Source: Parietichytrium sp. I65-24A (taxonomy: Eukaryota > Sar > Bigyra > Thraustochytrida > Thraustochytriidae). From it: a DNA stretch of 64,000 nucleotides. The stretch covers positions 434,001 through 498,000 of the forward strand of contig BLSF01000012.1 of assembly GCA_012862575.1 (NCBI GenBank). Direction: 5' to 3'. The translations under genes and the position numbers were made by a program. Under the pieces are notes generated by a model that saw only the letters and a program-made list of their open reading frames with translations, ran no database searches and was not told where the DNA came from. Below are positions 4,939 to 63,647 of the stretch, one piece after another (within the stretch, counting starts at the first letter, position 1; the number at the start of each line of letters is the position of its first letter).

Positions 4939-6861
4939 TTATAATTTAGCCTCCTTGGCCAGAACACCGATGCGGTACTTTTCCGCCTCCTGAATGGCAA
5001 ACGTACTGTGTTTTGTGATCTCAAAGAGTTTGGTGACGTCCTTTCCTGCTGCACGTAAGAGCACGTCTCCGCCTCCAGGATGATCACGAAGCCAAGAGGT
5101 TACGTCGTATACCTTTCCATGAAGTACGAACCACACGCCGTCATTCTCGGACTTGTGCTGTGCAACCTCATCCATTGTGATGACTCTGTCCTTGGCAATT
5201 TGAAGCTCCGGTCCAGCCTTCTCATTGACCCTCCCCAAATCCTCGATAGCGGCGTCAATTGACTGTCGAACGACTTGCGCATGAGCGTTGGCGCGTGTGT
5301 TGGCAGGTTCTTCCAGACTTGCAATTCGACGGCGCTTCTCGAGCGCAATGTGGCATCCATTGATCGCTTCAATGAAACCTAAAATTTGGTCAGACTTTAG
5401 GGTGTTGAACTCAGCGAGGGGCTGGCCAACTTTCTTGTACACTCGGTAATTACCAATGACGCTAGCCCAGAGCATGATTGCAAACTCCTGAGCGATGTTG
5501 CGCCCTATGCAAGAGTGTCCGCCTATGGAAAAAGGGAAAAATCCCTCCTTTGCAAATCCACGAGCACGAATCGGCTCACCAGGCGCAGCCTCGTTGAATC
5601 TCATCGGGTCGAATCGGGTGGCACCCTCCCAGAACGAGGGGTGTCGGTGTGCGCCAAAGATGTTGGCCATCACGTTTGTTCCCGGCGGTATGGTGTATTC
5701 ACCGAGTCGGGAAGGCTCGGTGCAATGTCTTGGGGCTACTGAAGTCGATGGAGTGTAGAGTCGCAGGCACTCCATCATTACACACTTCAAATACTGCAAC
5801 TGCATCAGCTTGTCATAAGTGTACAAATTGCGATTTCTTGCGGCAGGAACTGCTTCGCCAGCGGCTGCGGCCGCCTTTGCGTCCTGCGGTGTCTTATCTC
5901 CGAGCACACGATGCAATTCTTCTAGCACTTTGCCTTGGACATCTTGATGGACGCTCATCATTTCAATTGCAATCGTTAGCATGCGAGCGGTGTTTCCTAC
6001 ACCAGCCAAAAATCCAATCATATTTGAGACTGCTTCAAGCTCCGTAGGCACCTTTCCAGCAGGGCACTCTGCGGAGCGATTGGCGAGATTGGCCTCGATC
6101 ATGTGCGTGAGAATGTTGTGGTTCACCTTTGCTCCTCCCTTGATGTCGGCAATTGCTGCATAGAAGGTGTCAGCAAGAACCTTTTTGTTCGAGTTGAACT
6201 GCTCGGTGACTTGTTTAGGTTCTGTCTCCCTCCACCGCTTATTCATGGCTCGGTTTAGGAAAATTCTGTCGCAGATTTTCAGAGCCTCGAGTTGTTTGCA
6301 CTCTCCAGTTCGCAGCGCCGCGTACGACTTGCCCATACTCAGCGCAGACGACACATCTGCTGCAGCAAGCTCGGCGATTGCATACGCCTCCACGTGCCCT
6401 TGCGCAATTTGCTCCTTTTCGAGACGGTCCAAGAAGTCCATGGCTATTTCGCTCAGCGGCTCAACCATCTTGGCGTTGTGAGGCTCAGCAAAGAGCCACT
6501 GAGAGAGCATCCTCTTGTTATTCTTGTGCTCGTCACCATCGAGCGCAATTTGCGCTCGGTCAAACAGGATTCGAACGTTTGCTATCACGTTTGGCGGTCG
6601 CGGGAAGCGCTCCGTGGCCGACCCACCCAAAAGCTCTCTGATTTGCAACGGGTCCCGCGTGACCACCAATGGGACCTCGCCCAGCGGGAGCATGTAGATG
6701 TCTCCAAACTCGTCGTGCAGCTTTTGATACGTATTGATGTCCTTCAGGTTCAGCTTTTTAGCGATGTTCCTCGGCGGGCCGGGCGGGTAGCCCTTAGACA
6801 TGAGCCCCAGGTTGCGTTCATCTTTGAGCCCTGCCTCTCGCAGCGTGGATGTGCCAGACAT
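4939..6861 (-). CDS. Cytochrome P450 fused to a C-terminal cytochrome b5 domain
   Basis: Haem-thiolate monooxygenase with its own electron-transfer haem domain, 640 residues from the ATG at 6861. The frame stays open 12 codons further but without an ATG. The P450 part has a proline-rich hinge (PPGPP), an I-helix segment AGVGNT, an ExxR motif (ECLR) and the cysteine ligand loop FSIGGHSCIG with Cys near 451. A linker of about 100 residues leads to a cytochrome b5 domain (about 561-640) with the HPGG axial histidine and a second histidine in TKHST. No obvious N-terminal membrane anchor is present, unlike typical microsomal P450s. The I-helix has Asn where most P450s carry an acidic residue before Thr. 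Substrate is unknown. The b5 domain presumably supplies the second electron. It converges tail-to-tail with the myosin gene (370 bp apart). Confidence 0.92.
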   Translation of the reverse strand: MSGTSTLREAGLKDERNLGLMSKGYPPGPPRNIAKKLNLKDINTYQKLHDEFGDIYMLPLGEVPLVVTRDPLQIRELLGGSATERFPRPPNVIANVRILFDRAQIALDGDEHKNNKRMLSQWLFAEPHNAKMVEPLSEIAMDFLDRLEKEQIAQGHVEAYAIAELAAADVSSALSMGKSYAALRTGECKQLEALKICDRIFLNRAMNKRWRETEPKQVTEQFNSNKKVLADTFYAAIADIKGGAKVNHNILTHMIEANLANRSAECPAGKVPTELEAVSNMIGFLAGVGNTARMLTIAIEMMSVHQDVQGKVLEELHRVLGDKTPQDAKAAAAAGEAVPAARNRNLYTYDKLMQLQYLKCVMMECLRLYTPSTSVAPRHCTEPSRLGEYTIPPGTNVMANIFGAHRHPSFWEGATRFDPMRFNEAAPGEPIRARGFAKEGFFPFSIGGHSCIGRNIAQEFAIMLWASVIGNYRVYKKVGQPLAEFNTLKSDQILGFIEAINGCHIALEKRRRIASLEEPANTRANAHAQVVRQSIDAAIEDLGRVNEKAGPELQIAKDRVITMDEVAQHKSENDGVWFVLHGKVYDVTSWLRDHPGGGDVLLRAAGKDVTKLFEITKHSTFAIQEAEKYRIGVLAKEAKL

Positions 6862-8324
6862 CCTTTTGAGCAAATGCACTCTCCTCCTGCGCTCCACTGC
6901 TCCACCTCTCCCGCGTCAAACTATTTCGCCGCTTGCTTGCTCTCCTTGCTGCGTTCGTTCGCAATTTGCTTTGCCAAACTAAGCTGTCATGCAGATAGGA
7001 CATCAAAGGGTATTTAGCAACAAACCCACGACCATTATTAAGTTACCACTCAATTCTTCTTCATATCAATGCATGTCAAAGCTCACTGCCAGTGCTCACG
7101 GTACAGTGGTACTCAGTCACGGTGCACTGCAAACTGATGGAGATTTATTGAAGATTTGCAATGTGTGCCACTGTTCTCTTTCAAAATTTACATTTTTCCA
7201 ACGCATTCCTGTCGAGGATGTACTCCAAAGTAACTCGACCAACTTTCAAAGCGGCCTTCCCGAAATGCTGCATCTCTATATTCGACGTTTCTACTTTTAC
7301 TTTGCTGATTGTCTGCTTTTGCGAACGTCACTTTACATTGGTCAACCTGATCTGATCTGTTCTGTGAACAGACAGAAACAACAGAGACGATAGGACATAA
7401 AACCGTCCTAACGCCGCGTGTCGCGTAACAGAGGAGCCCTTTACTACGCACCGGTTGAGTGAGCACGACTCATCATGGAGCAAGGAAAATGTTAAACTAA
7501 AAACTTTACATCATTTCACGTTCAACAATTGGAATGTGGACTTGCTCTGGCGGATGGCGACGGGACCTTCGGCGGGGTACTCGAGTACGGGCGCAGCTAC
7601 GTACGCTTTCGTTGGACAGAGTCTGCTAGCCTCGCGGCTCGGTTAACAAGTGCTAGCTAGCTAGCTAGCACTCAAAATCGCTCTCCTCCGAGCGCAACGT
7701 CCAGGGGTTCGTCCTTGAACGCCCTGCACTGGCACTGCGCAGAGTTTGATTTACATGTTTTACTGTTAATTTAAAAGTGGAGCCACGAAGTGCAGCGCAA
7801 ACAAACCCTATTGGAAGGTAGGGTGGTCTGAAATAGAGGACGCTTTTGCCTCATGATAAACCTCTGCCGCCTGCAACCGGCAACCCTTTGCATCAACCCA
7901 AATGATCAATTGGCATTCTTGTTTCAATGTTTCATTGTTTCATTGTCTCGGTTCGTTTCGTTGTGTTCAACCAAACCGAGATGAAGATGGGTCGTATCCT
8001 CGTCATTCTTTCTCGGCGACCAGGCAAAAAAACAACCAACTAACCAACCAACCAAACAATCAAACAAACAATCAAACAAACAAACAACCAAACAATCAAA
8101 CAAACAGACCTTATCCTTCCTCCGCTTGTCTTTTCGGCCAAGCGTTCGTTCGTCAATTTCAAAAGAACTTGACAGCAGTAACTTATCATCGCTCTCCCTC
8201 TTCCCACCGTATCTTTCGTACCGGTACTCACTGTACAAAAGTGAGCCCTCACAAACAGCCTTACGTTACGAAGCAACACAGGAACGCAGGGACACTGGGA
8301 CGCTGGGACGCTGGGACGGGTTCA
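6862..8324. other. Intergenic region between divergent P450 and fucokinase-like genes
   Basis: This is a shared divergent promoter region of about 1.46 kb. It contains a GCTA tandem run (about 7653-7672) and a long CAAA/CCAA low-complexity tract (8034-8107). An ATG at 7902 is in frame with the downstream gene, but the intervening 140 codons are low-complexity and look non-coding. No RNA gene was recognised. Confidence 0.5.
8034..8107 (+). repeat. (CCAA/CAAA)n microsatellite
   Basis: Imperfect tetranucleotide tract made of CCAA, CAAA and CAAT units in the 5' flank of the fucokinase-like gene. It is readable in one frame as an Asn/Gln/Thr/Lys-rich string, which makes the apparent upstream extension of that gene doubtful. 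Confidence 0.85.
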
Positions 8325-12617: not shown

Positions 12618-13937
12618 TTAATCGTTCAAAGTCAGTTCGTTGTCGATCTCAGCGATGAGATCTTCCAGCTCCTTGTCGAAACGATCCTGTGAGGACTCAG
12701 CTACGGAGACGAGGTCATCATCATCCATGTTTCCCTCGCCGTCTCCATTATCCATGCCGTCATCCGACATCTTCGTGTCATCATCAAACAGCCCATCTGC
12801 GGCGTCCCAGCTTGCCTCCTCGTCATTATCTTGTTCGTCTCCGGCTGTCTTTTTCGCCTCACTAGACTCAGCTTGCTCTCTGGTTTCAAGACTCTCTTCT
12901 CCTGATTTCAGAGGCTGAGCGTAGTCGTCCGCGTCTGGAGCTTGGGCACCTTCTTTAAACGTGGAGGATGCTTTTGGCGGCTCGTTGCCATTCCCTGGTC
13001 TTACTTGATCGTTAGCATATTCCTCTCCCTCAGATACCGAAAGAGGCGTTTCTTCCACGCTCTCAGCCTTTGTTTCGGGCCTTCTCTCCTCTCCGCTTTG
13101 GCCAAAATCGGCGCCATCTCTGCCTTCGTCTGCGGAGGCGCTATGTCCCACAGATTCTTGGATCTGCGAGTCAGGGTATCGTTCGTTGCCCGGTCGCAAA
13201 GGACCCTCCTCAGTCAAATGCTTACGATCAGAAGCTGCCTGATAATCATCGCCGTTTGCATCTCTCGCACGATGACGTGCAGGGTGCTTTACTACATTTT
13301 GCTTCGCGCTGTTGTAGCGCTCCACGGCTGCTTTAAAGTGCTCAATCGCCGCAGGTTGTGAATCAGCGTTCGCATCCTCTTCCAGGTCTTCGACTAAACC
13401 ATCATCATTCTCAGCAGGATTATCATCGCCGTTTCCATCTCTCGCACGATGACGCTCAGGGTGCTTTACTACATTTTGCTTCGCGCTGTTGTAGCGCTCC
13501 ACGGCTGCTTTAAAGTGCGCAATCGCCGCAGGTTGTGAATCAGCGTTCGCTTCCTCTTCCAGGTCTTCGACTAAACCATCATCATTCTCAGCAGGATCTA
13601 GCACATCCGACTTGGCAGACTTTGCGGTGGTACCTGCAATCTGCTGCTCGCCGCCAACATCAGCAACATCAATTGCATCCCCATTATCAACGTCGTACTC
13701 AGACGCACCGTTGTCTCCCGTGTGCAAGAACTCATTCGAGTCATTCACATCCACATTCTCGCCTCCCGCGCCGGCAATTGTCTTCAAAGCGCCACGAATC
13801 GCAGACCTTGCAGCTGTATAGCTTCTGCCGACGCTGATTCCGTCGTCGTCAGGGGCCGACCAAGACGCCATGCGCAGCGCGGCAATCATTACGAAAAGCA
13901 CCACCGCACCCGCCAGAACGCCCGTTTTCAGCGCCAT
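12618..13937 (-). CDS. Acidic, repeat-containing single-pass membrane or secreted protein, function unknown
   Basis: 439 residues. An N-terminal hydrophobic segment (about residues 7-24, GVLAGAVVLFVMIAAL) looks like a signal anchor or signal peptide. The rest is hydrophilic and very rich in Asp, Glu, Ala, Ser and Asn. Two tandem 59-residue repeats lie around residues 117-235, each carrying AAVERYNSAKQNVVKHP. The C-terminus is almost purely acidic. I do not recognise a family. The composition suggests an extracellular or Golgi-lumen low-complexity protein, possibly cation-binding; this is inference. The stop lies 124 bp from the convergent upstream gene. The 5' end is duplicated at 14148-14735 beside an assembly join. 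Confidence 0.7.
   Translation of the reverse strand: MALKTGVLAGAVVLFVMIAALRMASWSAPDDDGISVGRSYTAARSAIRGALKTIAGAGGENVDVNDSNEFLHTGDNGASEYDVDNGDAIDVADVGGEQQIAGTTAKSAKSDVLDPAENDDGLVEDLEEEANADSQPAAIAHFKAAVERYNSAKQNVVKHPERHRARDGNGDDNPAENDDGLVEDLEEDANADSQPAAIEHFKAAVERYNSAKQNVVKHPARHRARDANGDDYQAASDRKHLTEEGPLRPGNERYPDSQIQESVGHSASADEGRDGADFGQSGEERRPETKAESVEETPLSVSEGEEYANDQVRPGNGNEPPKASSTFKEGAQAPDADDYAQPLKSGEESLETREQAESSEAKKTAGDEQDNDEEASWDAADGLFDDDTKMSDDGMDNGDGEGNMDDDDLVSVAESSQDRFDKELEDLIAEIDNELTLND
13235..13590 (-). repeat. Two tandem 177-bp coding repeats
   Basis: The two copies are offset by 177 bases (59 codons); for example TTCGACTAAACCATC recurs at 13389 and 13566. They are nearly identical at DNA level and keep frame, so the duplication within the acidic protein gene is recent. 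Confidence 0.85.
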
Positions 13938-14735
13938 GGTCCCCCCTCCTCCTGACGAAATCAGCGGCCGAGAACTGTGGGGCCACGCTCGAGCGAGCCT
14001 GTCCTCTCCGTCCTCGCTGGAAACGTCGGGTAATGCAATGGTACATGTGTGCGTAAGTGTGAGCTGTGCAAAATGTGGTCGCGGGTGTCACAGGTATGGT
14101 ACCATTATACATGTGATGGATGACTGAGCGAAGGATGAGTTCACTGNTTCGACTGAACCATCATCATTCTCAGCAGGATCTAGCACATCCGACTTGGCAG
14201 ACTTTGCGGTGGTACCTGCAATCTGCTGCTCGCCGCCAACATCAGCAACATCAATTGCATCCCCATTATCAACGTCGTACTCAGACGCACCGTTGTCTCC
14301 CGTGTGCAAGAACTCATTCGAGTCATTCACATCCACATTCTCGCCTCCCGCGCCGGCAATTGTCTTCAAAGCGCCACGAATCGCAGACCTTGCAGCTGTA
14401 TAGCTTCTGCCGACGCTGATTCCGTCGTCGTCAGGGGCCGACCAAGACGCCATGCGCAGCGCGGCAATCATTACGAAAAGCACCACCGCACCCGCCAGAA
14501 CGCCCGTTTTCAGCGCCATGGTCCCCCCTCCTCCTGACGAAATCAGCGGCCGAGAACTGTGGGGCCACGCTCGAGCGAGCCTGTCCTCTCCGTCCTCGCT
14601 GGAAACGTCGGGTAATGCAATGGTACATGTGTGCGTAAGTGTGAGCTGAGTGAGCTGTGCAATCTGTGCAAAATGTGGTTGTGGGTGTCGCAGGTACCGT
14701 TCTATTATAGACTGAGCGAAGGATGAGTTCACTGT
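13566..14735. repeat. Direct duplication (about 580 bp) flanking an 'n'
   Basis: Bases 13566-14146 and 14148-14735 are two direct copies separated by a single n. The copies are near-identical in the coding part and slightly diverged in the promoter part; for example GTGAGCTGTGC is expanded to a longer GTGAGCTGAGTGAGCTG in the second. This is most simply an uncollapsed contig overlap. Confidence 0.8.
14148..14519 (-). pseudogene. Duplicate 5' fragment of the acidic membrane protein gene at a contig join
   Basis: From the ATG at 14519 this copies the first 120 or so codons of the gene at 12618-13937 almost perfectly, then stops at the 'n' at 14147. The duplicated block continues into the 5' flank to about 14735, where the two copies diverge by short indels and substitutions as alleles would. 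The most likely explanation is two overlapping contigs or haplotypes placed end to end. A genuine partial tandem duplication is the alternative. Confidence 0.7.
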
Positions 14736-17700
14736 TCTCCTGGAACGAGCAGCTCTTTGGTCTTGGGTGATTTCAACTCACAGTCAGTCAATCAATTGAA
14801 CTTCGATAGTTGTGAGTTTTCCATTTTCCAGTTCTTCATTGGTCTAAGGGCCGCAAAAACGAAGAAGTCAGAAGCTTATGTACTCGTTGGATTTGCAGTT
14901 GCATTGCATTTTCAGTGCAGTTGCAGTAAACCTTGGCGTGGTTCCCAGATTTCTCAGGCTTTCATTACCTTTCATTGGTTAGAGTTTTAGACTTGGGAAA
15001 ATTAGAAGACGACTATTGTTTTGTCTGCAGTGGTTTCTGAGTTGAGAGTCTCTTTAAAGGGTTAGGTTTTTCACGTGGGTACGAGTAGACAACGATTTCC
15101 AGTTTCAGCCAGTTTCTGGACAGAAAGCCTCCTGCCAGGCCAGTGAGCTTGATCATCGTGAAGAGCAGTTCAATACATGTCTTCACTTTTTATTCTTTGT
15201 TTCTTTTTCAGAGATCGCAGTGCGGAAATCGAATCCAGTGCCATCTTCATATCTCATTCCCGAATCTCTGCTACAAAAGGTGCAGCGACTAGAATTAGGA
15301 CGACGGTGCAACCTTTCGCCTCTTCACGCCCGCGATCCGGCCTGCCGAGACTCGTTCACTGCAGAGCCACTCTGCAGTTGGGAACTTTCTTGTCACCAAG
15401 TGACAGAGACACCAACATCGGCCACATTTGCCAAACCTTGAACAAGTGGATCCGCGAGGCTCTACTCAACTCACGTAGTTCACGTAGCGCGAGAGTCGCC
15501 AGAGATCGCGAGAGCGGGAAGCTGATCGACCGCGTTTCGCGCTAGCTCTACGGCGACAGCTAGCGCGCCAGTATTCTCGGAGGAGTGTACACAACGCCGC
15601 GCGTGATGGCCTACTGCTCTCTCTCTCTCTCCCTTCCCCATTCTCATTCTCAATCTCTTCCTCTCTTCAGAGACTCGAGAATCAAAGACTTGATCGTCGG
15701 TGGGTGAGTGGTTGAACTTCAAACTGAGAGCTGCTTTCTTTGGAAATTAGCTGTAAGAACAAATGGAAATGGACTTCTCATGGTGGCTCATGCTTTCACT
15801 CCTTTCTTGTCTCATGCATCTCCGATTGCTGGCGGTGAATTTGTACCGATAAATAACTGAGATTAATAGAGGAGAGGTATCTCCAAAATATAATGGCATG
15901 CGCGCCAAACTAGGTAAATATTTTGCCTTCTTGGAGTTGGCGCCTTCCGCGCAAGCCCCTTTTCGGGTAAAAAGAGACCCCGACATGCTTTCAACTCACA
16001 GTTAGGTCTTCGCCTTCAAGACTCCTCAACCGTGCTGAACTGACCGCCAATTCTGCAAGCACTGCATCACGTAGCGTGTCGATATGCGAATCTTTAGTAC
16101 GAGGGATTCCAGTTCGGATGCTCCGGGTCTGGTGAAGCCTTCAAAGCTGCCTCATTGATTGATTGATTGCTTAGATTCATCTGATTGATTGTTTGATTTG
16201 ATCGATCGATCGATCTACGATGGAAAGGTCCAGCGTCGAGCCTTGGTGCGCTGGCGTGTCCCTCGGCAGCTGGCTTACTTTGCCACTTCTTTTTCCTTGC
16301 CTCTCTTCTGTTTAGCTTTTTAACTTTCCAGCTTTTCGAATGTATCATTTGATTTCAATCATCAAAATCTGATTGAAAGAAAAGTGCAAAGTGTTCGCTG
16401 TCGATTCAGCATCTCCCTCGCACACAACTCTCATCACGATTCCACTAATCCTGAGTACTATTAATACGTATTAATACTCTCCCACCGACCGCGTTTTGCA
16501 CAAGAATCACAAAACTTTTCCTGTCAGCACCCCTATCGTTACCATTAAACGCCTCATAGGACCTCCCTCCCTCACGGCGGAAATGTTAGTAGCCACGCCA
16601 CACCTCACTAGGAGTGGCACCCAGTAGGTATATGCTAGCTCTGTCACTAGTGTATGTTCTGTTGGTGGGATGGTAGGTAGCCGACCGTAACGCTTACGGT
16701 AACAGTCACTTGCTAAGTACAAAAAGTAAAGGGTGTGCGCTCTCCGCCAAAAAGAAAGAAAGAAAGTGAAGGAGAAGGTGGAAAGTGAAGATCATTAAGG
16801 CTAAGATGGGAGAAACGGTAGTGCGAGTCAGGCTCCGTGAGGAGGGAGGGAGAGAGGATTCGGTGGACGAGTGACTTTCGGACTCGCCAAGCAGTGATTT
16901 TAGGACTTGCTTCTCGCAACTGGACAACTCGGCAGCTGCAATAGCTCCACGGAAGATCGAGTGTCTGCAGTGTGTCTCATCGATCACGGCACTCTAGTGC
17001 TAGTGCTGCAGAAGCAATCACCTCAGAAGGCGGAGTGCAAACGTTGGTTGGCTTTGATAAGCTTATTGGAAGTAACACAAATTGTTTCCTTCTGTCCACC
17101 AAGAATAGTGCCTCGTTAGAGCTGCTACTGTCGTAGAGCAGGTCCACGTTCAAGTGTGCTCACGAACGCACACTTTCCCAAAACAATTCGCCGTAGGGGC
17201 CCCTTTAACCGACTTTATTTTCCAGGTCCAAAATCGGTCCGATAGTTGTTGCCAGACACTATTGACCAAATCCGAGATGCTTGACCAGTAAGTTAAATGC
17301 CCAACTTGACCAACGCGGGTGAAGGTATTGGTGCGAAGACCCAAACTTACACCTCGGTGTATCGTCTCAGTTTAGGGCAAGTGGCCAGATTTGGCAAATG
17401 TGGCGTGGACTCCAAAGCCCCCTTGTGACTTCAGAAACTTTGTAAACAAACACAATCAAGTCACGTGAATGGATCGCCAGGACAGATCTCACGCGAGCAG
17501 CACTAGCAGAGCACCTTCTGCAGGCCAAAAGAGCGGATTTGGCGGCTGCTGAAGGTTGAGGTCAGGTTCTAGTACCGGTAGTCTGGGCTACCTCGACTTC
17601 GACGCAAGGTGATGCTTGGCTTACTGTTCATTTACAGTTGTCTTGAAGTAACTCCAGAGAGCATTGGTCGTTACCAAGTACTTTCACCCGCAGTGCACGT

Positions 17701-20908: not shown

Positions 20909-22297
20909 CTATTCATCAGCGGCCGTTCTCGCATCGGCGTCGTAAATTAGCTCTGCTTCCATCTCCATTTTGACGCATAGCGTTTTAAATTCCTGAGTAA
21001 CACGAAAGCGCTGAAAACCGTCGCGCTTCATCAGACTAAAAATCTCGTCAATAGCTTCATCAAACACGCCGTTCTCGACGGGGCCTCTACCTTCTTTGAG
21101 GAAAACATCCTCCAGGTTGCCGCGTTGGTTGCTCTGCAGATTGACCTGCATTTTGGCACTGTCAGGCACGAAAGAATCGAAAATCGTTGTGGCGATTTTT
21201 TCTCTTGTCGACTCTGATGTACCACGGTAACTGTCACGCCAGTCTGTGGCCGCCTTCCAAAACAGAATATTTTCAACGTTGTATTCTTGAGCCAGATGCC
21301 TTTCAAATGCCTCCAGACCGGCCTCAGAGCTCAAAACCATCCCAAGAGTCACCTTGGCTGGGTCCAACTTTCCGCCAGTGCCTGTCACAGACGATGGAGC
21401 CACCGTCGTTTTGTACTTTCCTCCGCTGCTCTCATCCCCACCGGCCCGCCTCCGAAACTTTGTTGCAGATTCTGCGTCCACAATTGTTTGCATCACGGGC
21501 CGCACGCAGACAACATAATGATTGTAGTAGCTCAGCCCAACGAGTACCCACATCGGATCCTGATTTACCCCAAAAACACCGAAAACCACCAAGACATTCC
21601 AGATTACTCCAAACACAAGACATGCCCCGAGCAAGCGGCGGACTTCAGCGCGCAGCCCCATTGGATCTTCGTGGTGCTTGAGCCGCTGCAGCAAGACCAG
21701 ACTAGCTATAACCTGTGCAATGGCAAATGCGAAGAGAGCGTAGTTTGCAAGGGAGCTGAAATTGCACCCGGTACACCCTTTCAAATATTGATCGTCGGTG
21801 CTCACCACCAACACCATAATGGCCAATGGGACAAGGCACAGAAACGCCAAGACGCGTAATTCGTTCCATCTTCCAGCCCTTCTAATTCGCTTGATGAGCA
21901 AATCAAGATTTGCCGACTCCTCTCCGATTTTGAACGATTTCACAGCGTTTCCGAGCTTTATGCGATTGTACATTTGGGAGAGCGAAATTGTTAGGGGGCC
22001 AGCAAACAGGGGCACGTATAGAACGGAGCAAATGAGCGAAACGTCGCACGAGAATGTCTGTCGGCCATACCCGTCCCTCCACAGGCACATTACAAGCAAG
22101 AGCATCGACGCAAATGTCTGCGTTGCGGTGAGGACGACCGACCTTGCGCAGATTGGGTATAGACGTTGCCGCGCCACCATCAGCGCCAAGGGCACCAGTA
22201 AATACACCGTCGACACCGCAAACGCAACGAGCGACAAGGCCTGAAGCCGCGGGTCCATCTCCCCGGCAGCTGTTACAGTCGCATTGCAGGTTGACAT
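20909..22297 (-). CDS. Seven-transmembrane receptor with C-terminal RGS domain
   Basis: 462 residues. Seven hydrophobic segments occupy about residues 15-270, with a short extracellular N-terminus and paired cysteines in a loop (GCTGCNF). A cytosolic Ser/Gly-rich linker leads to an RGS domain at about 318-440. The domain shows the usual landmarks: an opening LGMVLSSEAGLEAFERHL, an ENILFWKA helix, a VNLQSNQRGN turn, and a FDEAIDEIFSLMKRDGFQRF end. RGS domains accelerate GTP hydrolysis on G-alpha; a 7TM-RGS fusion (as in plant RGS1) couples sensing directly to G-protein shut-off at the plasma membrane. The ligand is unknown. The start is the only ATG before the first helix. Confidence 0.9.
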   Translation of the reverse strand: MSTCNATVTAAGEMDPRLQALSLVAFAVSTVYLLVPLALMVARQRLYPICARSVVLTATQTFASMLLLVMCLWRDGYGRQTFSCDVSLICSVLYVPLFAGPLTISLSQMYNRIKLGNAVKSFKIGEESANLDLLIKRIRRAGRWNELRVLAFLCLVPLAIMVLVVSTDDQYLKGCTGCNFSSLANYALFAFAIAQVIASLVLLQRLKHHEDPMGLRAEVRRLLGACLVFGVIWNVLVVFGVFGVNQDPMWVLVGLSYYNHYVVCVRPVMQTIVDAESATKFRRRAGGDESSGGKYKTTVAPSSVTGTGGKLDPAKVTLGMVLSSEAGLEAFERHLAQEYNVENILFWKAATDWRDSYRGTSESTREKIATTIFDSFVPDSAKMQVNLQSNQRGNLEDVFLKEGRGPVENGVFDEAIDEIFSLMKRDGFQRFRVTQEFKTLCVKMEMEAELIYDADARTAADE

Positions 22298-22471
22298 CTT
22301 TCCGGCGACACGTCTCCCTCTCCTCCACGGAGACTACCTCTTCTCGCCCGCCTCCTTTCGTCGCCTCCGTTCAACCTGACAAACTGCCAGCTTCCCGTCT
22401 CACCTCGAACACAGGCAATTGCTCGTTCACTCTGTTTATCCTTGCACAGCCAAACCAATCCTCATGACCAA

Positions 22472-55607: not shown

Positions 55608-58143
55608 TCAAGCTGAATTTATTCTCCTTATGAGCTCCTCGATGAAAGGATCTGCGAGGTACTTGCGCCGCTGAAAATCCATCGCCTCCTTCTTTTTAAA
55701 AATGGACTCGGCGTAGTCGGGGCATGCGCTAATGTGTTCGCTGAGAGGCTCAAAACCTGGTGAGTTTATCTTGGGGTCATACACCAAAATAATAGGTTTC
55801 TTACACTCTAGAGCCTCTTTCAGCTCTTTGCAAACTGCAGGGCGAGTGAACACGTCCTTGGTTAGGAGCAGCAAATACACCTTGGACTCGTGCACGCCTG
55901 TCATCATTTCATCCTCGCCGAGGTTTCTCTCAAAGTTCATGTCATACCACACATTTAGACCTCTTGCTTCCAGCTTGGTGGCAAGAATTCCAGCCATATC
56001 CATTGCCGTGGCTTGATAATGGCTTATGAAGGCATGGTGCTTACACCCTGTCGGAAGCGCTTTAAGCCGGCACTTTGGAACATTGGGACCTTCTGTGTCT
56101 GAGTCAAGGGGTCCTAGACTTGCGTCTTCGAAGAAGGCGTCAAAATCTCCGATCTGAACAGTGCGATTGGAACCTTTAGGCCGGATGCGATCCTCGCCAC
56201 TCTCACGCGCCTTGAGGATGCTCTGGTAATTGATTCGTACTCCGTTTACTGGCGATTCCAGTTGGAGCTTCCATCCTAAGGTAGGATACAGTCGATCTCT
56301 TTGTTCCAAAAACATCGATACCAGTACTTTCATGACTCTCGGAGCCTCTGGTGTGCCTTCTACCAGAGTAATGCGAATGAAATCGCTGGCCTCAACAAAG
56401 GCGACTGCAAAAATACCCATATACACGATAGCCTGATGTTTTGCGAGCTTGGGTGGCTCCTCTTGATTGCTCGCACATGTCGATATCAGGCGCTCGAAAA
56501 CTCCTTTCGGAAGGGAAAAATCGGAAAAATCTAGCACACACGTCAGTCCGCCGTTAAAGTCTTCAAGGTTCAGGGGTTCAAGGTCTTTTTCCTGCCTGAT
56601 GAGGCTTGTGACGAGGTATTTGTCTACTCGGCCGACTCTGAAGCTGCTGAGTAGCATTGTCTCACGCATGAAGTCGAGGAGGTAGTCCACTTGCTCCTCA
56701 TCCCACAAATACTCGAGTAGCGCGCGAGAGGCCACTGCGTCTCGGCGATAGTCTTCGAGATCAGCTCCGAGATCCCGCGCTTCCAGCTCTTCCTCAAAGT
56801 GCTCATTCTCCGAATGCCGCTCGTCATTGATGACCCTTGCAAGTTTGTTGAGCAGCCATTGGGGTTTGATCACTACTGTGTCCATAAGACGCGCTGTAGC
56901 CCGCTGATGCACTAGAACCCCGAGTTCGTGAAATGTGAAGAGCATCTCATCCGCCTGCTTAGGGCATATCCCATAATCCGAAGCGATGGACACGACATCT
57001 TCTCGCGGCATATGAGTTTTGCCAGAGAGTAGGAGGTCATCGAGCACTTTGTGCCAGGCCAATGGTATCTGCTTGTTGACGCACTTTAGACCTACTGCAC
57101 ACGACTGCACCACTTCGCGTAGCTCGACAGCGCGGTCTGGGGAGTCCTCCACATTGTTAACTGGGAAGAAGAACAGCTTGGCGCTGTTTTTTACTACTTT
57201 GTACCGGGCAACGTGGGCTACATCTCGCAGCACAACATTGACCTTTTTGTGGTCAACTGCGGCATTGACAGTGTCTGCACGCGTTCCCACGAGAATAACA
57301 GGAGCGTCTGGAGCGTGTAGCTTGATCGAATCAAGCCAGAACCTGAGAAATTCAAGAGCCTTGGCGTCTTTTTTGAGAACTTTACTCATGTCAAATGCCA
57401 CCAAGTAGATGCCTTCCTTACTGAGAAATATATGATGGAGCGCATAAAACACCTCTTGGCCGCCATAGTCCCATATCGAGAAGCTCACATCTGGCCCTGA
57501 ATCGCTCTTAATTGTCAACGCCTTGATTTCTTCGTAATCACACCTCGCGGCCACATCATCAACGAGATGCTTCCGAGGTTCTTGGGACGGAATGAGTTCC
57601 TCAAGTTTCATGCTTTTGCGTGTCGATTCGGTCTTCGTCGTGGCAGGACGGCGACCTAAGGAAGTGATACGTTTGACTGACTTGCGAACTGAGCCTGAAA
57701 TACTTGTTTTCTTCTTTGGTGTCACATTGCCCCGGGATTTGAAGCGGGCTGCAGCAGCTTTGTGAACTTGGAGATTAAAGCTCGATTCGCCGACTTTTTG
57801 CTCGCGCCAGTTTGCAGTGTTGATCACTTTCAGATCGATGCCGTTGGTGCTCGGTGTGTCTTCTGGCGGCATTCTCAACAGGGATCTGAGGGTGGAAGTT
57901 TTACCTGCACGTCCCTCGCCAACGAGCATTAGCTTGGCGCGGCCCCAAGCCTGAAAGTCACCATTTTCAATCGCTGCCTTGAAGTGCTTTTCTAACTCGG
58001 CGCGTTCGACTGACGAGTTGAAGTGCTTTTCTAACTCAGCGCGTTCGTCTGGCGTCTGCGCATGCTGCGCTATCCTGTTTTGCTCGAGTTTGGCTTTGAT
58101 GGCCGCCAATGTTTTGCTATTCTGTATACGGTTACCTGAAAGA
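55608..58143 (-). CDS. Terminal exon encoding Roc, COR and TIR domains
   Basis: This 2536-base exon follows a TTGTAACAG acceptor (58144-58150). Its first codons complete the last LRR (LDLSGNRI) and run into a helix with a short duplicated piece, RAELEKHF twice within 16 residues. The Roc domain carries a basic insert of about 70 residues between P-loop and DYGGQE, rich in Ser and Lys. COR has the WHKVLDDLL and VIKPQWLLNKLARVI segments typical of the family. The TIR C-terminal part reads VYLLLLTKDVF then VCKELKEALECKKPIILV. There is no kinase domain after COR, unlike LRRK proteins; TIR takes the output position. Confidence 0.88.
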
Positions 58144-61100
58144 CTGTTACAAGGACATAGTCGAGCGTGTCAGTCAAGATCACGAACGTTCCAATTTTAG
58201 CAGGGTACTGAACCATATCACCAAAACCGATGTCAAAGTCACACGTACTCCAACTCCAATGCAGTCAGCGTAGTGTTCTTCTCCAACGCGCGACCGATCG
58301 CTGATCCTCCTTCATCGCCAATCGTATTAGATTGAAGACTATTTCACCACAAAGAGACATGAAATCGTCAGCCAGCAAGTCCGAGAAAGCGTAGCAAGTT
58401 ACGAAAACAATCCCACCAAACCAATGTCAAAGTCACACGTACTTTAACGTAGTCAGCGCAGTGTTCCTCTCCAACGCGCGACCGATCGCTGATCCTTCTT
58501 CATCGCCAATTGTATTAGATTGAAGACTATTTCACCACAAAGAGACATGAAATCGTCAGCCAGCAAGTCCGAGAAAGCGTAGCAAGTTACGAAAACAATC
58601 CCACCAAACCAATGTCAAAGTCACACGTACTTTAACGTAGTCAGCGCAGTGTTTGTCTCCAACGCGCGACCGATCGCTGATCCTCCTTCATCGGCAGTGC
58701 CAGTATTTTCAAGACTATTTCATTACAAAAAGACATTTAATCGTCAGCCACTAAGCCCGAGAAAGTTTACTAAACCGTTTCACCAAGCCGGTGTCAAAGT
58801 CACACGTACTCCAAAAACGTCAGCGCAGTGTTCCTCTCCAACGCGCGACCGATCGCTGCTGCTCCTTCATCGCCAATTGTATTAGATCGAAGGCTATTTC
58901 ACCACAAAGAGACATGAAATCGTCAGCCAGCAAGTCCGAGAAAGCTTAGCAAGTTACGAAGACAATCCCACCAAACCGGTGTCAAAGCCACACGTACATC
59001 AATGTGGTCAGCGCAGTGTTCTTCTTTAACGCGCGACCGACCGCTAATGCTCCTTCAAGGCCAAATCCACTACCTTGAAGACTAATTCATTTTTTAAAAC
59101 ATGAAAGCGTCAGCCACCAAGTCCGAGAAGGTTTTGTAGGACACTAGACCGTTGTCATCCAACCGGTGTCAAAGTCACACGTACTCCAACTTAGTCAGCG
59201 TAGTGTTCTTCTCCAACGCGCTACCGATTGCCGATGCTCCTCGAGCGCTAAGTCTTTCATTCTGAAGACTATTTCAATTTTAAAAGACATGAAAGCGTCA
59301 GCCACCAAGTCCGAGAAAGCTCAGCAAGGGACTAATCTTGTCACCAAACCGGTGTCAAAGCCACACGTACATCAATGTGGTCAGCGCAGTGTTCTTCTCC
59401 AACGCGCGACCGACCGCTGATGCTCCTTCAGAGCCAATTTCATTTCCTCGAAGACTATTTCATTTTTAAAAAACATGAAAGCGTCAGCCACCAAGTCCGA
59501 GAAAGCTCAGCAAGAGACTAATCTTGTCACCAAACCGGTGTCAAAGTCACACGTACATCAATGTGGTCAGCGCAGTGTTCTTCTCCAACGCGGTACAGAT
59601 CGCCGATGATCTTCGATCGCGAAGAATCACATTCTGAAGACTGTTTGCGTGAAGAATTACATTCTGAAGACTGTTTCATTTTTAAAAGACATGAAAGCGT
59701 CAGCCACCAAGTCCGAGAAAGCTCAGCAAGAGACTAATATTGTCACCAAACCGGTGTCAAAGTCACACGTACATCAATGTGGTCAGCGCAGTGTTCTTCT
59801 CCAGCGCGCGACCGAGCGCTGATTCTCCTTCAGCGCCAATTTCAAATCCTCGAAGCCTATTTCAATACAAAACGGGAATGAAGTCGTCAATCACCAAGTT
59901 TCCGAGAAAGTTCAGCAAGAGACAAATCTCTTTCACCAAACCGGTGTCAAAGTCTCACTTACACAAACTAGTCAGCGCAGTGTTCTTCCCCAACGCGCGA
60001 CCGATCGCTGATGCTCCTTCATAAACGGTTTCATTTTCAGAAAGACTATTTTTCATTACAAAAAGACATGAAGTCGTCAGCCATCAAGTCCAAGAAACTT
60101 AAGTTCAGCAAGGGACTCTCACCAAACCGGTGTCAAAGTCACACGTACTCCAATGTAGTCAGCGCAGTGTTCCTCAACGTGCGACCGATTGCCGATGCTA
60201 CTTTAAAGCCAGTTCCACTTCCTCTAAGACTATTTCATTGCAAAACGGGCATGAAATCGTCAGCCACCAAGCCCGAGAAAGTTCAGCAAGAGACTAATCA
60301 TTTTCAACAAACCGGTGTCAAGGTCACACGTACCTCAATGTAGTCAGCGCAGTGTTCTTCTCCAACGCGCGACCGATTGCTGATGCTCCTTGAGCGCCAA
60401 TGGAACTGGATTGAAGACTATTTCATTACCGAAAGACATGAAATCGTCAGCCACCAAGCCCGAGAAAGTTCAGCAAGAGACTAATTTTGTCACCAAACCG
60501 GTGCCAAAGTCACACGTACATCAATGTGGTCAGCGCAGTGTTCTCCTCCAACGCGCGACCGATCGCTGATACTCCTTCAGCGCCAATTTCATTCTCTTGA
60601 AGACTATTTCATTACAAAATGACATGAAGTCGTCAGGTCAGCAAGATACAAATCCTTTTCACCAAACCGGTGTCAAAGTCACACGTACTCCAAACGAGTA
60701 GTGTNAAAGTCACACGTACTCCAATGTAGTCAGCGCAGTGTTCTTTTCCAACGCGCGACCGATCGCTGATGCTCCTTCATCTCCAATTTTATTACGGTGA
60801 AGACTATTTAATTACAAAAAGAGGTGAAATTGTGAGCAACCAAGTCCGAGAAAGTTTGGCAAGGTACTAATCCGTTTCACCAAACCGGTGTGAAAGTGAC
60901 ACTAGACTCGGAATCGTATCACAACAGATCTCGAGACTTGCTACTTGTGAGAACCAACTTACTCCAGCTTAAGAAGCGTTTTACTTCCCTCGAGCACTGC
61001 TGCAACCTTTTTCGCCCCATCTGGCCCCGCATTGCATCCCAAATCAAACCTGTTTAAAGGGAATGCACCATTAGAACCGAAGTCCTCCGCCTCGACACTC

Positions 61101-61231
61101 TGAAAATCGGCAACTCACCTCACGGCTTCTTTACCTCCGTCAATTGCCTCCAGGCCTTCCTCCAACGAGTTCACACACCAAAACCTCTCAAACTCGTCTA
61201 CGTTTAACCAGTTCTCATTGTACCAGCCCAT
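55608..61231 (-). CDS. LRR-Roc-COR-TIR receptor-like protein (ROCO family), 17 exons
   Basis: Exons on the minus strand: 61231-61119, 61049-60963, 60803-60720, 60603-60520, 60417-60334, 60229-60149, 60045-59965, 59856-59773, 59640-59557, 59454-59371, 59268-59185, 59081-58998, 58893-58810, 58714-58631, 58526-58443, 58338-58249, 58143-55608. All introns are phase 2. The spliced frame is open and sums to 3912 nt (about 1303 residues). Order: a 37-residue N-terminal cap (MGWYNENWLNVDEFERFW), about 15 leucine-rich repeats, and a last half-repeat LDLSGNRI. Then come the Roc GTPase (P-loop GEGRAGKT near 534, DYGGQE near 684, GTRAD near 745), the COR domain, and a TIR domain (about 1160-1303, HHAFISHY start). 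Known ROCO proteins are GTP-regulated dimers. TIR and LRR suggest an immune-type sensor; that role is inference. Exon 60045-59965 needs a GTGTAAGT donor to keep frame. Confidence 0.85.
58249..60803 (-). repeat. Tandem array of about fourteen 186-bp exon-plus-intron units, one LRR per exon
   Basis: Units recur at 179-194 bp spacing (one 216, one 169), anchored by CAAAGTCACACGTAC on the plus strand at 58234, 58428, 58616, 58795, 58983 (variant), 59170 and so on to 60705. Read on the minus strand, each unit has an acceptor (G)AAATAG or AAACAG. An exon of 84 nt follows (81 or 90 in three units), then a GTACGTGTG donor. Each exon encodes one 28-residue repeat of the form LxxNxIGxEGASAIGRALEKNTALTTLD. 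Introns of about 102 bp share sequence along their length, including CTTTCTCGGACTTGGTGG and GGCTGACG, a likely branch site. Confidence 0.9.
60674..60719. repeat. Assembly join inside the LRR exon array
   Basis: The motif AAAGTCACACGTACTCCAA occurs on both sides of the n at 60705, separated by only 30 bases instead of 186. The short stretch between (AACGAGTAGTGT) is not part of any unit. Contigs were probably joined inside the array, so one or more LRR units may be missing or a partial unit may be false. Confidence 0.75.
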
Positions 61232-63506
61232 CTTTTCGTCTCCTGTCTCCAGAGTTCCCGCACGGGATGCTGCAATGCTTCACGCTCTTTCGCCCCCCAC
61301 CCTGTCGCACCTTGTCCCTTTTGAGGTCTGCTTCGTTCATAGACTCTGCGACGCTTATTTTTCCGTTCCGTCATGCATACCCGTTCCTTTATATCTCTCC
61401 CTAGTCTGAAAGCTTCTTGCGTGTCCCAAGGGTGTGTAAGGCTTACCATGATATTCTATTGTAATCCATAGGGTTGGAGTTGCTCAAAATCCCACGCTGG
61501 AACAACGAGCTGTTCCAGTAGGCTGGTCTTAATTATCTAAACAATACCGGTAGTGATTACGCACCCGGGCCAAATTCGTAAAAGGCACATGCACTCGTGA
61601 GGGACGTTGCACTGCACAAACCCGGGCCAGGGCCTGTAGAATATAGAACTTTGTCCTTCGTTGCTCACAGTCAACCTCACTCTTGCGCAACGAGCGCTTT
61701 GGAAGCAAACTAAGGATCGACTTAATTTTGTGAGTTTTTTGACCTCCAGGTAAAAATTCATATTCACTGTCAACGCCGATTCAGCCGAATTGCCACGACT
61801 TGAGAAAACAATCGTTCACATACACTACATACACGTCTTGATGGATTGATTGTCGTCAACATTCAAGTCTTAATCTTCATTAGCGGAACGAGATTTCTTG
61901 GAGTCCACGAAGGTAGCAAAGTACAGAATTCTGAAGCAAATCGCAGTTTAATTTCCAGCGCGATGAGTTACCACGTTCCATCAAACTCTTCTCTTGACGA
62001 TCGGTCCGCAATTGTTCGCAAATAGAGGCGAAATTCCGCATCACTATCTGCACCCTTTTTTGAGCCACAAGCAGTATAGGGAGACGGAGCAGACGGAGAA
62101 ATAAAAAATTCAATCGCTAATCTCAGCTGCGCTAGTCATCTCGTCGGGGGTGCTCAGCGGTGAGCAGCTAATTGATTCCTTCGGGTCCATTTCCCTGGAG
62201 GGAAATCTTCACTTTCATTCTCTTTTACTCTCCAAGTTTCGTTGACATTAGCCTGTTTTCGATGCGCGCTGCGTGTGGAGCAGATGAGTTCGCGCTCTCA
62301 GGCTTGCACACCAACCCATTCGCTCCGCATAAAGCACTGCGACGACGCACCCCACCTTCCGATAGGTTTGTTTACGCTGCACTTCATGGCTTCACTTGGC
62401 GACGACGAAATGTGGAACTTCCTCCTCCTCCTCCTCGGACACGTAGGCGTTGCGGGGGGATGGCAACAAGCAAGACTCCAGCATCACAGCTTCCTGACCG
62501 ATTGTCTGGCGCTCCATCACCAGGCTGAGGCAAAACAAAAACTTTGACATTTTAACATTTTACAAGCTTAGGTAATTGGAAACTAGATGTGAAAAGTTTG
62601 TCGTGAGGAGACACGTGATTCGCGTGAGCTCACGTACTCATAGCAAGAAGGTAGTTGTATCTACTGACAGCAGATTGCTTTCGTGCCATGTGAACAGTGG
62701 ACGCTCAGACGCTTATAGTTTTGTTAGCATCTATCAGCGATTTAACTACTGCTACTATGAACGAATAGTACTCACAGTCAGTTGTATGTCTCTCCTACCC
62801 GTATGTCCGGGTCTTTCGTAGCCGTCTGTTAGTGGAAAGTGTGATGTACAGTACAGGCGGGTGGTAAAAGGTCTTCGAGCAAGTAGATTTCGGTGGTAGC
62901 TATCTAGTAGCTAGCTAGTAGCTAAAGTAGCTTCACGGATACTCTTACTGTACGCTGTGACATCACATCTGTTTACGAGGTCACTTCTCTCTAAAGTCAT
63001 TGTAAGGTAAGTCATTCGAATCTCTCCAGTGTGATCGTTTATGATTCTCTAGCTACTAGCTACTGGAAAACGAGCGTGATTGGCAAAGATACTGAAAGAT
63101 CTCAATAGTCATACTGGTACTCACTAAGTCAGTACAAAGTACCGGCACCCGTACTCTTGGCGAAAGATTTGGGTTGCTTCCGTCTCAATCTGTCATTTTA
63201 ATTAACAGTAAAAAACAATCCCAATCCTTGCCAGAGCACAAAGTGTTAAATACCATAGCGAGAATAGCGAGGATGATACTGCGTCTTAAAACATGTTAAA
63301 GTAAAAATGGTGACGACGCATGTCATTGAGACTGTCTCTCTCTCTATCCAGAGCAATCAACTCAATTTTGAGAAAGAGAGGCACTGAGTTCTACCTGTGC
63401 TGTACTGTGGCGACGTAAGATGCCTACTTTTCACAAGCGTCTCTGAGATCCAAGTGTTGCAAAAGGTCTGTGAGGGGATTGCACAAGGCAGTTCACAAAC
63501 CTGGTC
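61232..63506. other. Intergenic region upstream of the LRR-Roc-COR-TIR gene
   Basis: Includes the presumed promoter (from 61232 up), TACCGGTAGT at 61545, the motif GTACTCACAGTCAG at 62768-62781 and AGCTAGTAGCTA-type repeats (62898-62932, 63049-63066). No supported gene. Short open frames overlap on both strands. Confidence 0.45.
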
Positions 63507-63614
63507 TGCGTTGTTGCGTTGTTGCGTTGTTGCGTTGTTGCGTTGTTGCGTTGTTGCGTTGTTGCGTTGTTGCGTTGTTGCGTTGTTGCGTTGTTGCGCT
63601 GTTGCGTTGTTGCG
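63507..63614 (+). repeat. (TGCGTTGT)n octamer minisatellite
   Basis: About 13 near-perfect copies of an eight-base unit ending 34 bases before the ATG at 63648. It has no stop in any plus-strand frame and would encode an LRCCVVAL string if translated. Confidence 0.92.
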
Positions 63615-63647
63615 TCGAGTCGAGAGGTTTTAAGAGTGGGCGACGAC

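What the first reader, a model, noticed from the sequence alone, without database searches (positions are those of the whole stretch)
55608..61231. Hidden LRR-Roc-COR-TIR gene of about 1300 residues
The Roc-COR-TIR exon alone looks like a complete gene, and the 3 kb upstream looks like satellite DNA. Reading the minus strand with GT-AG introns joins them into one frame: a 37-residue cap, about 15 LRRs, Roc, COR and TIR. The sequence directly shows the open spliced frame, the P-loop, DYGGQE and TIR blocks. That LRR plus a GTPase switch plus TIR makes an immune-type sensor is inference from animal, plant and bacterial families. ROCO proteins ending in TIR rather than kinase, in a thraustochytrid, appear unusual.
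Basis: partly seen in the sequence, partly recalled or inferred. Interest (0 to 1): 0.93.

Follow-up and report, generated by a model that had tools for sequence, protein, structure and literature searches.

The report
Exon-per-repeat LRR-ROCO-TIR sensor gene
DNA of an unidentified eukaryote holds a split gene for a probable internal infection sensor whose repeat units, one per exon, differ mostly around the positions expected to touch other molecules; brown algae have similar genes, but the ones described lack this gene's TIR ending.

Summary
On the minus strand, 61231-55608, seventeen exons joined by GT-AG introns give one open frame of 1313 residues: cap, 15 LRR exons, Roc, COR, TIR. All introns lie in phase 2; most LRR exons are 84 nt. 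Weak point: the strong donor of exon 7 breaks the frame, which is kept only by a weak donor two bases upstream or by skipping the exon. Profiles and predicted folds support Roc-COR and TIR; the TIR keeps the glutamate that NADase TIRs need. New here: codons 2-9 of the LRR exons, which include the expected concave face, differ far more between copies (64/144 sites) than the upstream introns (57/583) or the rest of the exon (41/320). Diversifying selection fits best; raised mutation is not excluded. Closest known: brown-algal LRR-ROCOs, also one LRR per phase-2 exon (72 nt, no TIR). The ROCO-TIR order is not itself unusual: 17 of 72 prokaryotic relatives examined have a TIR. Best reading: an intracellular LRR-ROCO-TIR immune-type receptor, a new variant of a known kind. 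Immune function and splicing are inferred; host identity was not tested.

The parts
61119..61231 (-). Exon 1: start codon and 37-residue cap
   Evidence: ATG 61231, in-frame stop upstream at 61282 with no ATG between; donor GTGAGT
60963..61049 (-). Exon 2: first, degenerate LRR (87 nt; LRR by eye), donor GTAAGT
58249..60803 (-). Array of 14 LRR exons (E3-E16; most 84 nt, phase 2) with introns of 95-116 nt; period about 186-188 bp
   Evidence: exon table; unit and intron lengths; TRF; splice sites
59965..60045 (-). Exon 7: frame kept only with weak donor GTGTAA at 59964, or if skipped; strong donor GTAAGT at 59962 breaks the frame
59557..59670 (-). Exon 9 (114 nt) with a second in-frame acceptor giving 84 nt (59640-59557)
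55608..58143 (-). Exon 17: last half LRR, helical linker, Roc, COR, TIR, stop
57234..57947 (-). Roc GTPase (limits approximate): P-loop GEGRAGKT, DYGGQE, GTRAD; about 100 residues of low-confidence insert (57821-57522)
   Evidence: Pfam Roc; motifs and coordinates; fold matches 3dpu, 6hlu, LRRK2; residues 108-207 pLDDT under 50
56601..57065 (-). COR-A
   Evidence: Pfam PF16095 7.3e-14; coordinates
56046..56600 (-). COR-B region (limits approximate): no Pfam COR-B match, but the model aligns along the C. tepidum Roc-COR tandem
   Evidence: COR-B absent from the table of P0001; 3dpu_A, 645 alignment columns
55764..56039 (-). TIR domain (limits approximate); glutamate 773 of the terminal-exon protein at 55826-55824
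   Evidence: Pfam TIR_2; Glu invariant in 17 of 17 rows of A3; fold matches RPS4, RUN1, SARM1

Best explanation
It is one gene for a large intracellular LRR-Roc-COR-TIR protein of the ROCO family that works as an immune-type sensor. Shown by sequence: a one-LRR-per-exon array, all introns in phase 2, a Roc with GTPase motifs, COR, and a C-terminal TIR with the conserved glutamate. Shown by comparison of the copies: codons 2-9 of the LRR exons, which include the expected concave-face positions, differ far beyond the neighbouring introns, while the repeat framework does not. Inferred: the LRR solenoid binds a non-self or altered-self ligand; binding changes the nucleotide state and dimerisation of Roc-COR; that brings TIR domains together, and they cleave NAD+ or make an ADP-ribose signal, leading to alarm or cell death. 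Tandem duplication of symmetric exons and selection on the binding face keep changing the ligand range.
For: Open spliced frame and exon statistics. Domains and folds. Terminal exon has no usable start of its own. Diversification: in six disjoint exon pairs, codons 2-9 differ at 64/144 sites, framework 41/320, upstream intron 57/583; of the 15 pairs with upstream introns under 12% different, 12 show an excess in codons 2-9 at p < 0.05. E9/E10 differ at 17/24 there with both flanking introns only 3/102 and 4/102 different. dN/dS (Nei-Gojobori over all pairs, crude) 1.67 in codons 2-9 and 0.67 in codons 10-27. Among codons for the same residue, synonymous differences are 35/223 in codons 2-9 and 184/1247 in codons 10-27. 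Brown-algal ROCOs show one LRR per phase-2 exon, alternative splicing and positive selection on concave sites (PMC11378527). TIR Glu aligned with C. elegans tir-1 and invariant in 17 rows.
Against: No transcript, expression or population data. The strong donor of exon 7 breaks the frame, so the allele could be a pseudogene or need an odd splice. The concave face was assigned from recalled LRR geometry, not from a model of this LRR, and codons 4 and 6-9 are not classic contact positions. E13, E15 and E16 show no excess in codons 2-9 (1-2/24). At four-fold degenerate codons of unchanged residue, differences are 18/66 in codons 2-9 against 102/628 (9/15 in codons 2-6), so a raised mutation or exchange rate there is not excluded. 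The TIR matches solved TIRs weakly by sequence (best 0.0093), and its glutamate is found in over 70% of TIR domains (PMC7075850 passage), so it is weak evidence for NADase activity. A varied binding face could serve allorecognition, symbiosis or cargo binding instead of immunity.
Confidence: 0.62

Rival explanations
1. A recently damaged copy: a former LRR-ROCO-TIR gene now decaying, which is why exon 7 has lost the frame at its natural donor, exon 9 is aberrant and intron 3 holds a partial duplication.
For: Exon 7 breaks frame with the strong donor; exon 9 carries a 30-nt duplication and odd residues; the brown-algal paper says many ROCO genes may be pseudogenes (PMC11378527).
Against: No stop in 17 exons; 13 of 14 array exons keep a length divisible by 3 without any special choice; 97.5% of column shuffles give at least one stop; exon 7 can be skipped in frame.
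Confidence: 0.2
2. Not immunity: a ROCO signalling protein (chemotaxis, vesicle or cytoskeleton control, as in amoebae) whose LRRs bind the cell's own proteins, with TIR as a scaffold.
For: Roles of Dictyostelium ROCOs in chemotaxis and cytoskeleton (PMC4104024); TIR domains often act as scaffolds (PMC7075850 passage).
Against: Codons 2-9 diversify beyond introns, unexpected for a conserved internal partner; TIR and other conflict effectors sit in the same place in prokaryotic relatives (PMC8195603).
Confidence: 0.15
3. Two units: a non-coding satellite of dead LRR exons next to a separate Roc-COR-TIR gene.
For: The repeat is a DNA tandem array.
Against: First Met of the terminal-exon frame is residue 72, inside Roc strand 1; frame, phase and lengths of the exons are kept; no copies of the unit elsewhere in the window (blastn at E 1e-3).
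Confidence: 0.04

Closest known systems
Brown-algal LRR-ROCO candidate receptors (Teng et al. 2024, PMC11378527; Zambounis et al. 2012, not held, known from citations in the papers read)
   Same: LRR-Roc-COR; one LRR per exon; phase 2; tandem LRR exons; change concentrated on concave-face residues
   Different: There 72-nt exons and LRRs of 23 residues; here mostly 84 nt and 28 residues, RI-type by eye. The paper found no TIR in brown-algal ROCOs (small groups end in a peptidase or DUF900). Those hosts are multicellular; alternative splicing is documented there, not testable here.
Prokaryotic LRR-AP-GTPase(Roc)-COR-TIR conflict proteins (PMC8195603 section 15; loci L052, L054, L064, L045 and others)
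   Same: Same domain order; TIR with the same glutamate
   Different: Uninterrupted reading frames and other LRR profiles (LRR_14, LRR_8 or LRR_4 best in nine scanned, against LRR_6 here); about 18-24% identity in A2. This protein sits on a very long branch, so no recent transfer can be read from the tree.
Plant TIR-NLRs (RPS4, RPP1, Roq1) and animal TLRs
   Same: LRR sensor with TIR output; TIR fold best matches plant TIR-NLR TIRs, then SARM1
   Different: Switch is a Roc GTPase, no NB-ARC match; TIR at the C terminus; transmembrane segments not tested
ROCO-TIR proteins of Chondrus (TPR-ROCO-TIR), Aplysia and probably Trichoplax
   Same: Roc-COR joined to TIR in a eukaryote
   Different: Other sensor repeats or orders; no exon-per-LRR array mentioned in the passages I read
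LRRK2 and C. tepidum Roco
   Same: Roc-COR fold
   Different: Here a TIR follows COR, not a kinase

Membership tests
ROCO family | Roc domain with GTPase motifs | tested here: met
   Pfam Roc 5.4e-18; GEGRAGKT, DYGGQE, GTRAD
ROCO family | COR directly after Roc | tested here: met
   COR-A 7.3e-14; COR-B not matched by Pfam, but the model aligns to 3dpu
Brown-algal exon-shuffled LRR-ROCO | One LRR per exon, phase 2 | tested here: met
   (with the weak donor for exon 7)
Brown-algal exon-shuffled LRR-ROCO | 72-nt LRR exons | tested here: not met
   84 nt in 10 of the 14 array exons; the others 81, 81, 90 and 114 or 84
Brown-algal exon-shuffled LRR-ROCO | Diversifying selection on concave-face sites | tested here: inconclusive
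   Strong excess between copies of one gene in codons 2-9, but four-fold sites there are also somewhat raised and the face was assigned from recalled geometry; no codon site model fitted
Brown-algal exon-shuffled LRR-ROCO | Alternative splicing of LRR exons | not testable with these tools
   No transcripts; the symmetric exons allow it
Brown-algal exon-shuffled LRR-ROCO | Multigene family | not testable with these tools
   No genome held; no second copy in the window
TIR domain NADases | TIR fold | tested here: met
   TIR_2 over cut-off; Foldseek RPS4 4.3e-07, SARM1
TIR domain NADases | Catalytic glutamate | tested here: met
   E78 of P0002 invariant in 17 of 17 rows; aligned with the Glu of tir-1 KEL (its catalytic role recalled)
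TIR domain NADases | NAD+ cleavage | not testable with these tools
   Needs an enzyme assay
TIR-NLR (plant type) | NB-ARC or NACHT ATPase switch | tested here: not met
   Neither is listed by Pfam at E up to 1
Toll-like receptor | Signal peptide and transmembrane helix | not tested
   No predictor run
Prokaryotic LRR-GTPase-COR-TIR conflict systems | LRR, Roc, COR, effector in this order | tested here: met

The most novel reading that the evidence does not exclude
A protist runs a combinatorial intracellular immune receptor: 14-15 interchangeable phase-2 LRR exons, each with its own binding-face word, are mixed by alternative splicing (array donors are GTACGT rather than GTAAGT, and nearly any subset keeps frame) or by recombination between copies, giving many binding specificities in front of one Roc-COR switch and a TIR enzyme.
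Probability: 0.17. Interest if true: 0.87.

Novelty: new variant of a known kind. Interest (0 to 1): 0.57.

Why it matters
Repertoires built from one-LRR-per-exon ROCO genes have been discussed as a feature of multicellular brown algae: PMC11378527 links ROCO number to multicellularity and lists no more than four ROCOs per species in other SAR organisms. That makes a testable link between bacterial LRR-GTPase-TIR systems and eukaryotic immune receptors.

Tried and rejected
Targeted hypermutation or block exchange in the variable codons: less likely, not excluded. Among codon pairs for the same residue, synonymous differences are 35/223 in codons 2-9 and 184/1247 in codons 10-27; but codons 2-6 alone give 26/111, and four-fold codons 18/66 against 102/628.

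My first diversity comparison was misleading: it paired each exon with its downstream intron, which made E14/E15 look extreme (9/24 against 0/102). One search showed that E15 and E16 share an identical upstream intron and almost the same codons 2-9, i.e. duplication out of phase with my units. I use the upstream-intron numbers. Fisher p-values there treat sites as independent, which they are not fully. Distances in codons 2-9 do not follow intron distances (Mantel r -0.01), but neither do framework distances significantly (r 0.16, p 0.18), so this says nothing special about the variable codons.

Recent transfer from bacteria: P0001 lies on a branch of 5.1 changes per column next to another long branch, flagged as unsafe. 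Not decidable.

Close relatives: none in viral contigs with P0001; four distant loci (20-22% identity) with the two-row alignment, not examined; a degenerate DNA pattern of the exon end found nothing. PADLOC gave three weak matches, all to the TIR part.

Literature: 'Roc-COR' + 'TIR domain' + 'LRR' gave one paper; labyrinthulomycete + 'TIR domain' none. Listings for thraustochytrid + leucine-rich repeat, brown algae/ROCO/exon shuffling, ROCO + TIR domain, thraustochytrid + immune receptor, stramenopile + ROCO + leucine-rich repeat, labyrinthulomycete + innate immunity, and TIR/stramenopile/NADase showed no title or abstract start describing such a gene in this group; only the papers cited by call were opened. 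Most subscription papers are not held (Zambounis 2012).

Two scripts for finding TIR members did not work (one search found only P0001 itself; one search found none and ended in an error); the third did.

Full report
What is there. No whole genome is held for the window. On the minus strand between 61231 and 55608 lies a gene of 17 exons. E1 (113 nt) starts with ATG after an in-frame stop at 61282. E2 (87 nt) and E3-E16 encode one LRR each; ten of the 14 array exons are exactly 84 nt (the others: 81 in E6, 81 in E7 with the weak donor, 114 or 84 in E9, 90 in E16). E17 (2536 nt) encodes the rest. In the model all 16 introns are phase 2. Translation gives 1313 residues and no internal stop.

Is it more than chance. 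In the 14 array exons the predicted frame has 0 stops and the other frames 28 and 29. Column-wise shuffling of the observed variation gives 2.65 stops on average and none in 2.5% of 2000 shuffles. Exon lengths stay divisible by three (14 of 14 with the chosen sites) while 6 of 14 intron lengths do. Introns are poorer in G+C (0.433 against 0.505) and 15 of 16 have stops in all frames. The terminal exon has no Met before residue 72, within the first strand of Roc, so it is unlikely to be a gene on its own.

The weak point. Exon 7 is one base short at its end. With its strong donor the frame is lost; with GTGTAA two bases upstream, or with exon 7 skipped, it is kept. Which of these, or a sequence error, or decay, is true cannot be told here.

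Domains. Pfam: LRR_6, Roc, COR-A and TIR_2 over cut-off; COR-B not matched. An AlphaFold model of the terminal exon with 72 prokaryotic relatives (mean pLDDT 69.8, pTM 0.68) matches the C. tepidum Roc-COR tandem (1.5e-19) and LRRK2. Roc carries a low-confidence insert at residues 108-207. By sequence the TIR matches solved TIRs only weakly (best 0.0093). A model of the TIR (17 rows, mean pLDDT 75.9) matches plant RPS4 (4.3e-07), RUN1 and SARM1. The TIR glutamate is invariant in the 17 rows, which are this protein and 16 of the 17 prokaryotic TIR rows (L038, the weakest, was left out).

Diversification of the copies. I compared E4-E16 with their upstream introns. In six disjoint pairs codons 2-9 differ at 64 of 144 sites, codons 10-27 at 41 of 320, upstream introns at 57 of 583. 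Of 15 pairs whose upstream introns differ by less than 12%, 12 show an excess in codons 2-9 at p < 0.05. E9 and E10 have almost the same introns on both sides (3/102 and 4/102 different) and differ at 17/24 in codons 2-9. Against the trend, the three pairs among E13, E15 and E16 differ little in both, as expected of recent duplicates. Codons 2-9 have dN/dS 1.67, codons 10-27 0.67 (all pairs, crude). Synonymous change among same-residue codons is alike overall (35/223 against 184/1247), but four-fold codons are somewhat higher in codons 2-9 (18/66 against 102/628), so selection is the simplest reading and a raised exchange or mutation rate is not excluded. By the usual LRR motif (recalled) codons 2, 3, 5 and the split codon before codon 1 face the concave side; these four and codon 4, usually a structural asparagine, are the five most variable positions.

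Relatives. 85 open frames were found in them and 72 were put into alignment A2 with P0001; 13 were left out (near-copies, cut frames, second frames of a locus, and some others to stay under a size limit). TIR_2 is in 18 of the 73 rows; my own profile also gave 18. Of ten TIR-bearing ones whose upstream part I scanned, nine have LRRs and one has a second TIR instead. The tree needs 10 changes of the TIR label, at least 7 forced by starred branches: the ROCO-TIR fusion seems to recur. PMC8195603 (section 15 read) describes these proteins as conflict systems with at least 24 effector types including TIR.

Comparison with brown algae. PMC11378527 (abstract, sections 10 and 11, and part 1 of 2 of section 13 read) reports 111 ROCO genes in four species, one LRR per 72-nt phase-2 exon, alternative splicing, and four positively selected concave sites. 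Its authors found LRR-ROC-COR the only order in brown algae apart from small groups with a peptidase or DUF900 end, no more than four ROCOs per species in other SAR organisms including Schizochytrium aggregatum, and TPR-ROCO-TIR in Chondrus. The present gene shares the exon design but has mostly 84-nt exons, 28-residue repeats and a TIR.

Judgement. I take it as an intracellular LRR-ROCO-TIR receptor of immune type: the anatomy and the diversified codons are shown, ligand, switch and output are inferred. It is a new variant of a known kind. Its interest lies in the combination, and in the possibility that exon-mixing receptors exist outside multicellular algae; the host's identity was not tested here.

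Noticed in passing
window 12618-14777, minus strand: Two adjacent open frames encode nearly the same protein start (by eye), beside an N at 14147, with a 177-bp two-copy repeat at 13241-13597: a tandem duplication or an assembly fault.
   Followed up: no
window 57978-58046, minus strand: The linker between LRRs and Roc holds a short internal duplication (ERAELEKHF twice; by eye).
   Followed up: no
window 60688-60719: The donor region of exon 3 is partly duplicated, with an N at 60705, giving a second donor-like site; reading on to it meets a stop (by eye).
   Followed up: partly
window 4942-6915, minus strand: Cytochrome P450 fused to a C-terminal cytochrome b5 domain.
   Followed up: no
window 20912-22333, minus strand: Protein with a C-terminal RGS domain after a hydrophobic N-terminal half (by eye), like a receptor-RGS fusion.
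   Followed up: no
introns of the LRR array: Array donors are GTACGT in 13 of 14 array introns, while introns 1 and 2 of the gene have GTGAGT and GTAAGT and a likely myosin intron near 3077 has GTAAGT: possibly weaker donors that favour exon skipping.
   Followed up: partly
window 63507-63615: Octamer tandem repeat (TGCGTTGT, 13.6 copies) near the window end.
   Followed up: no
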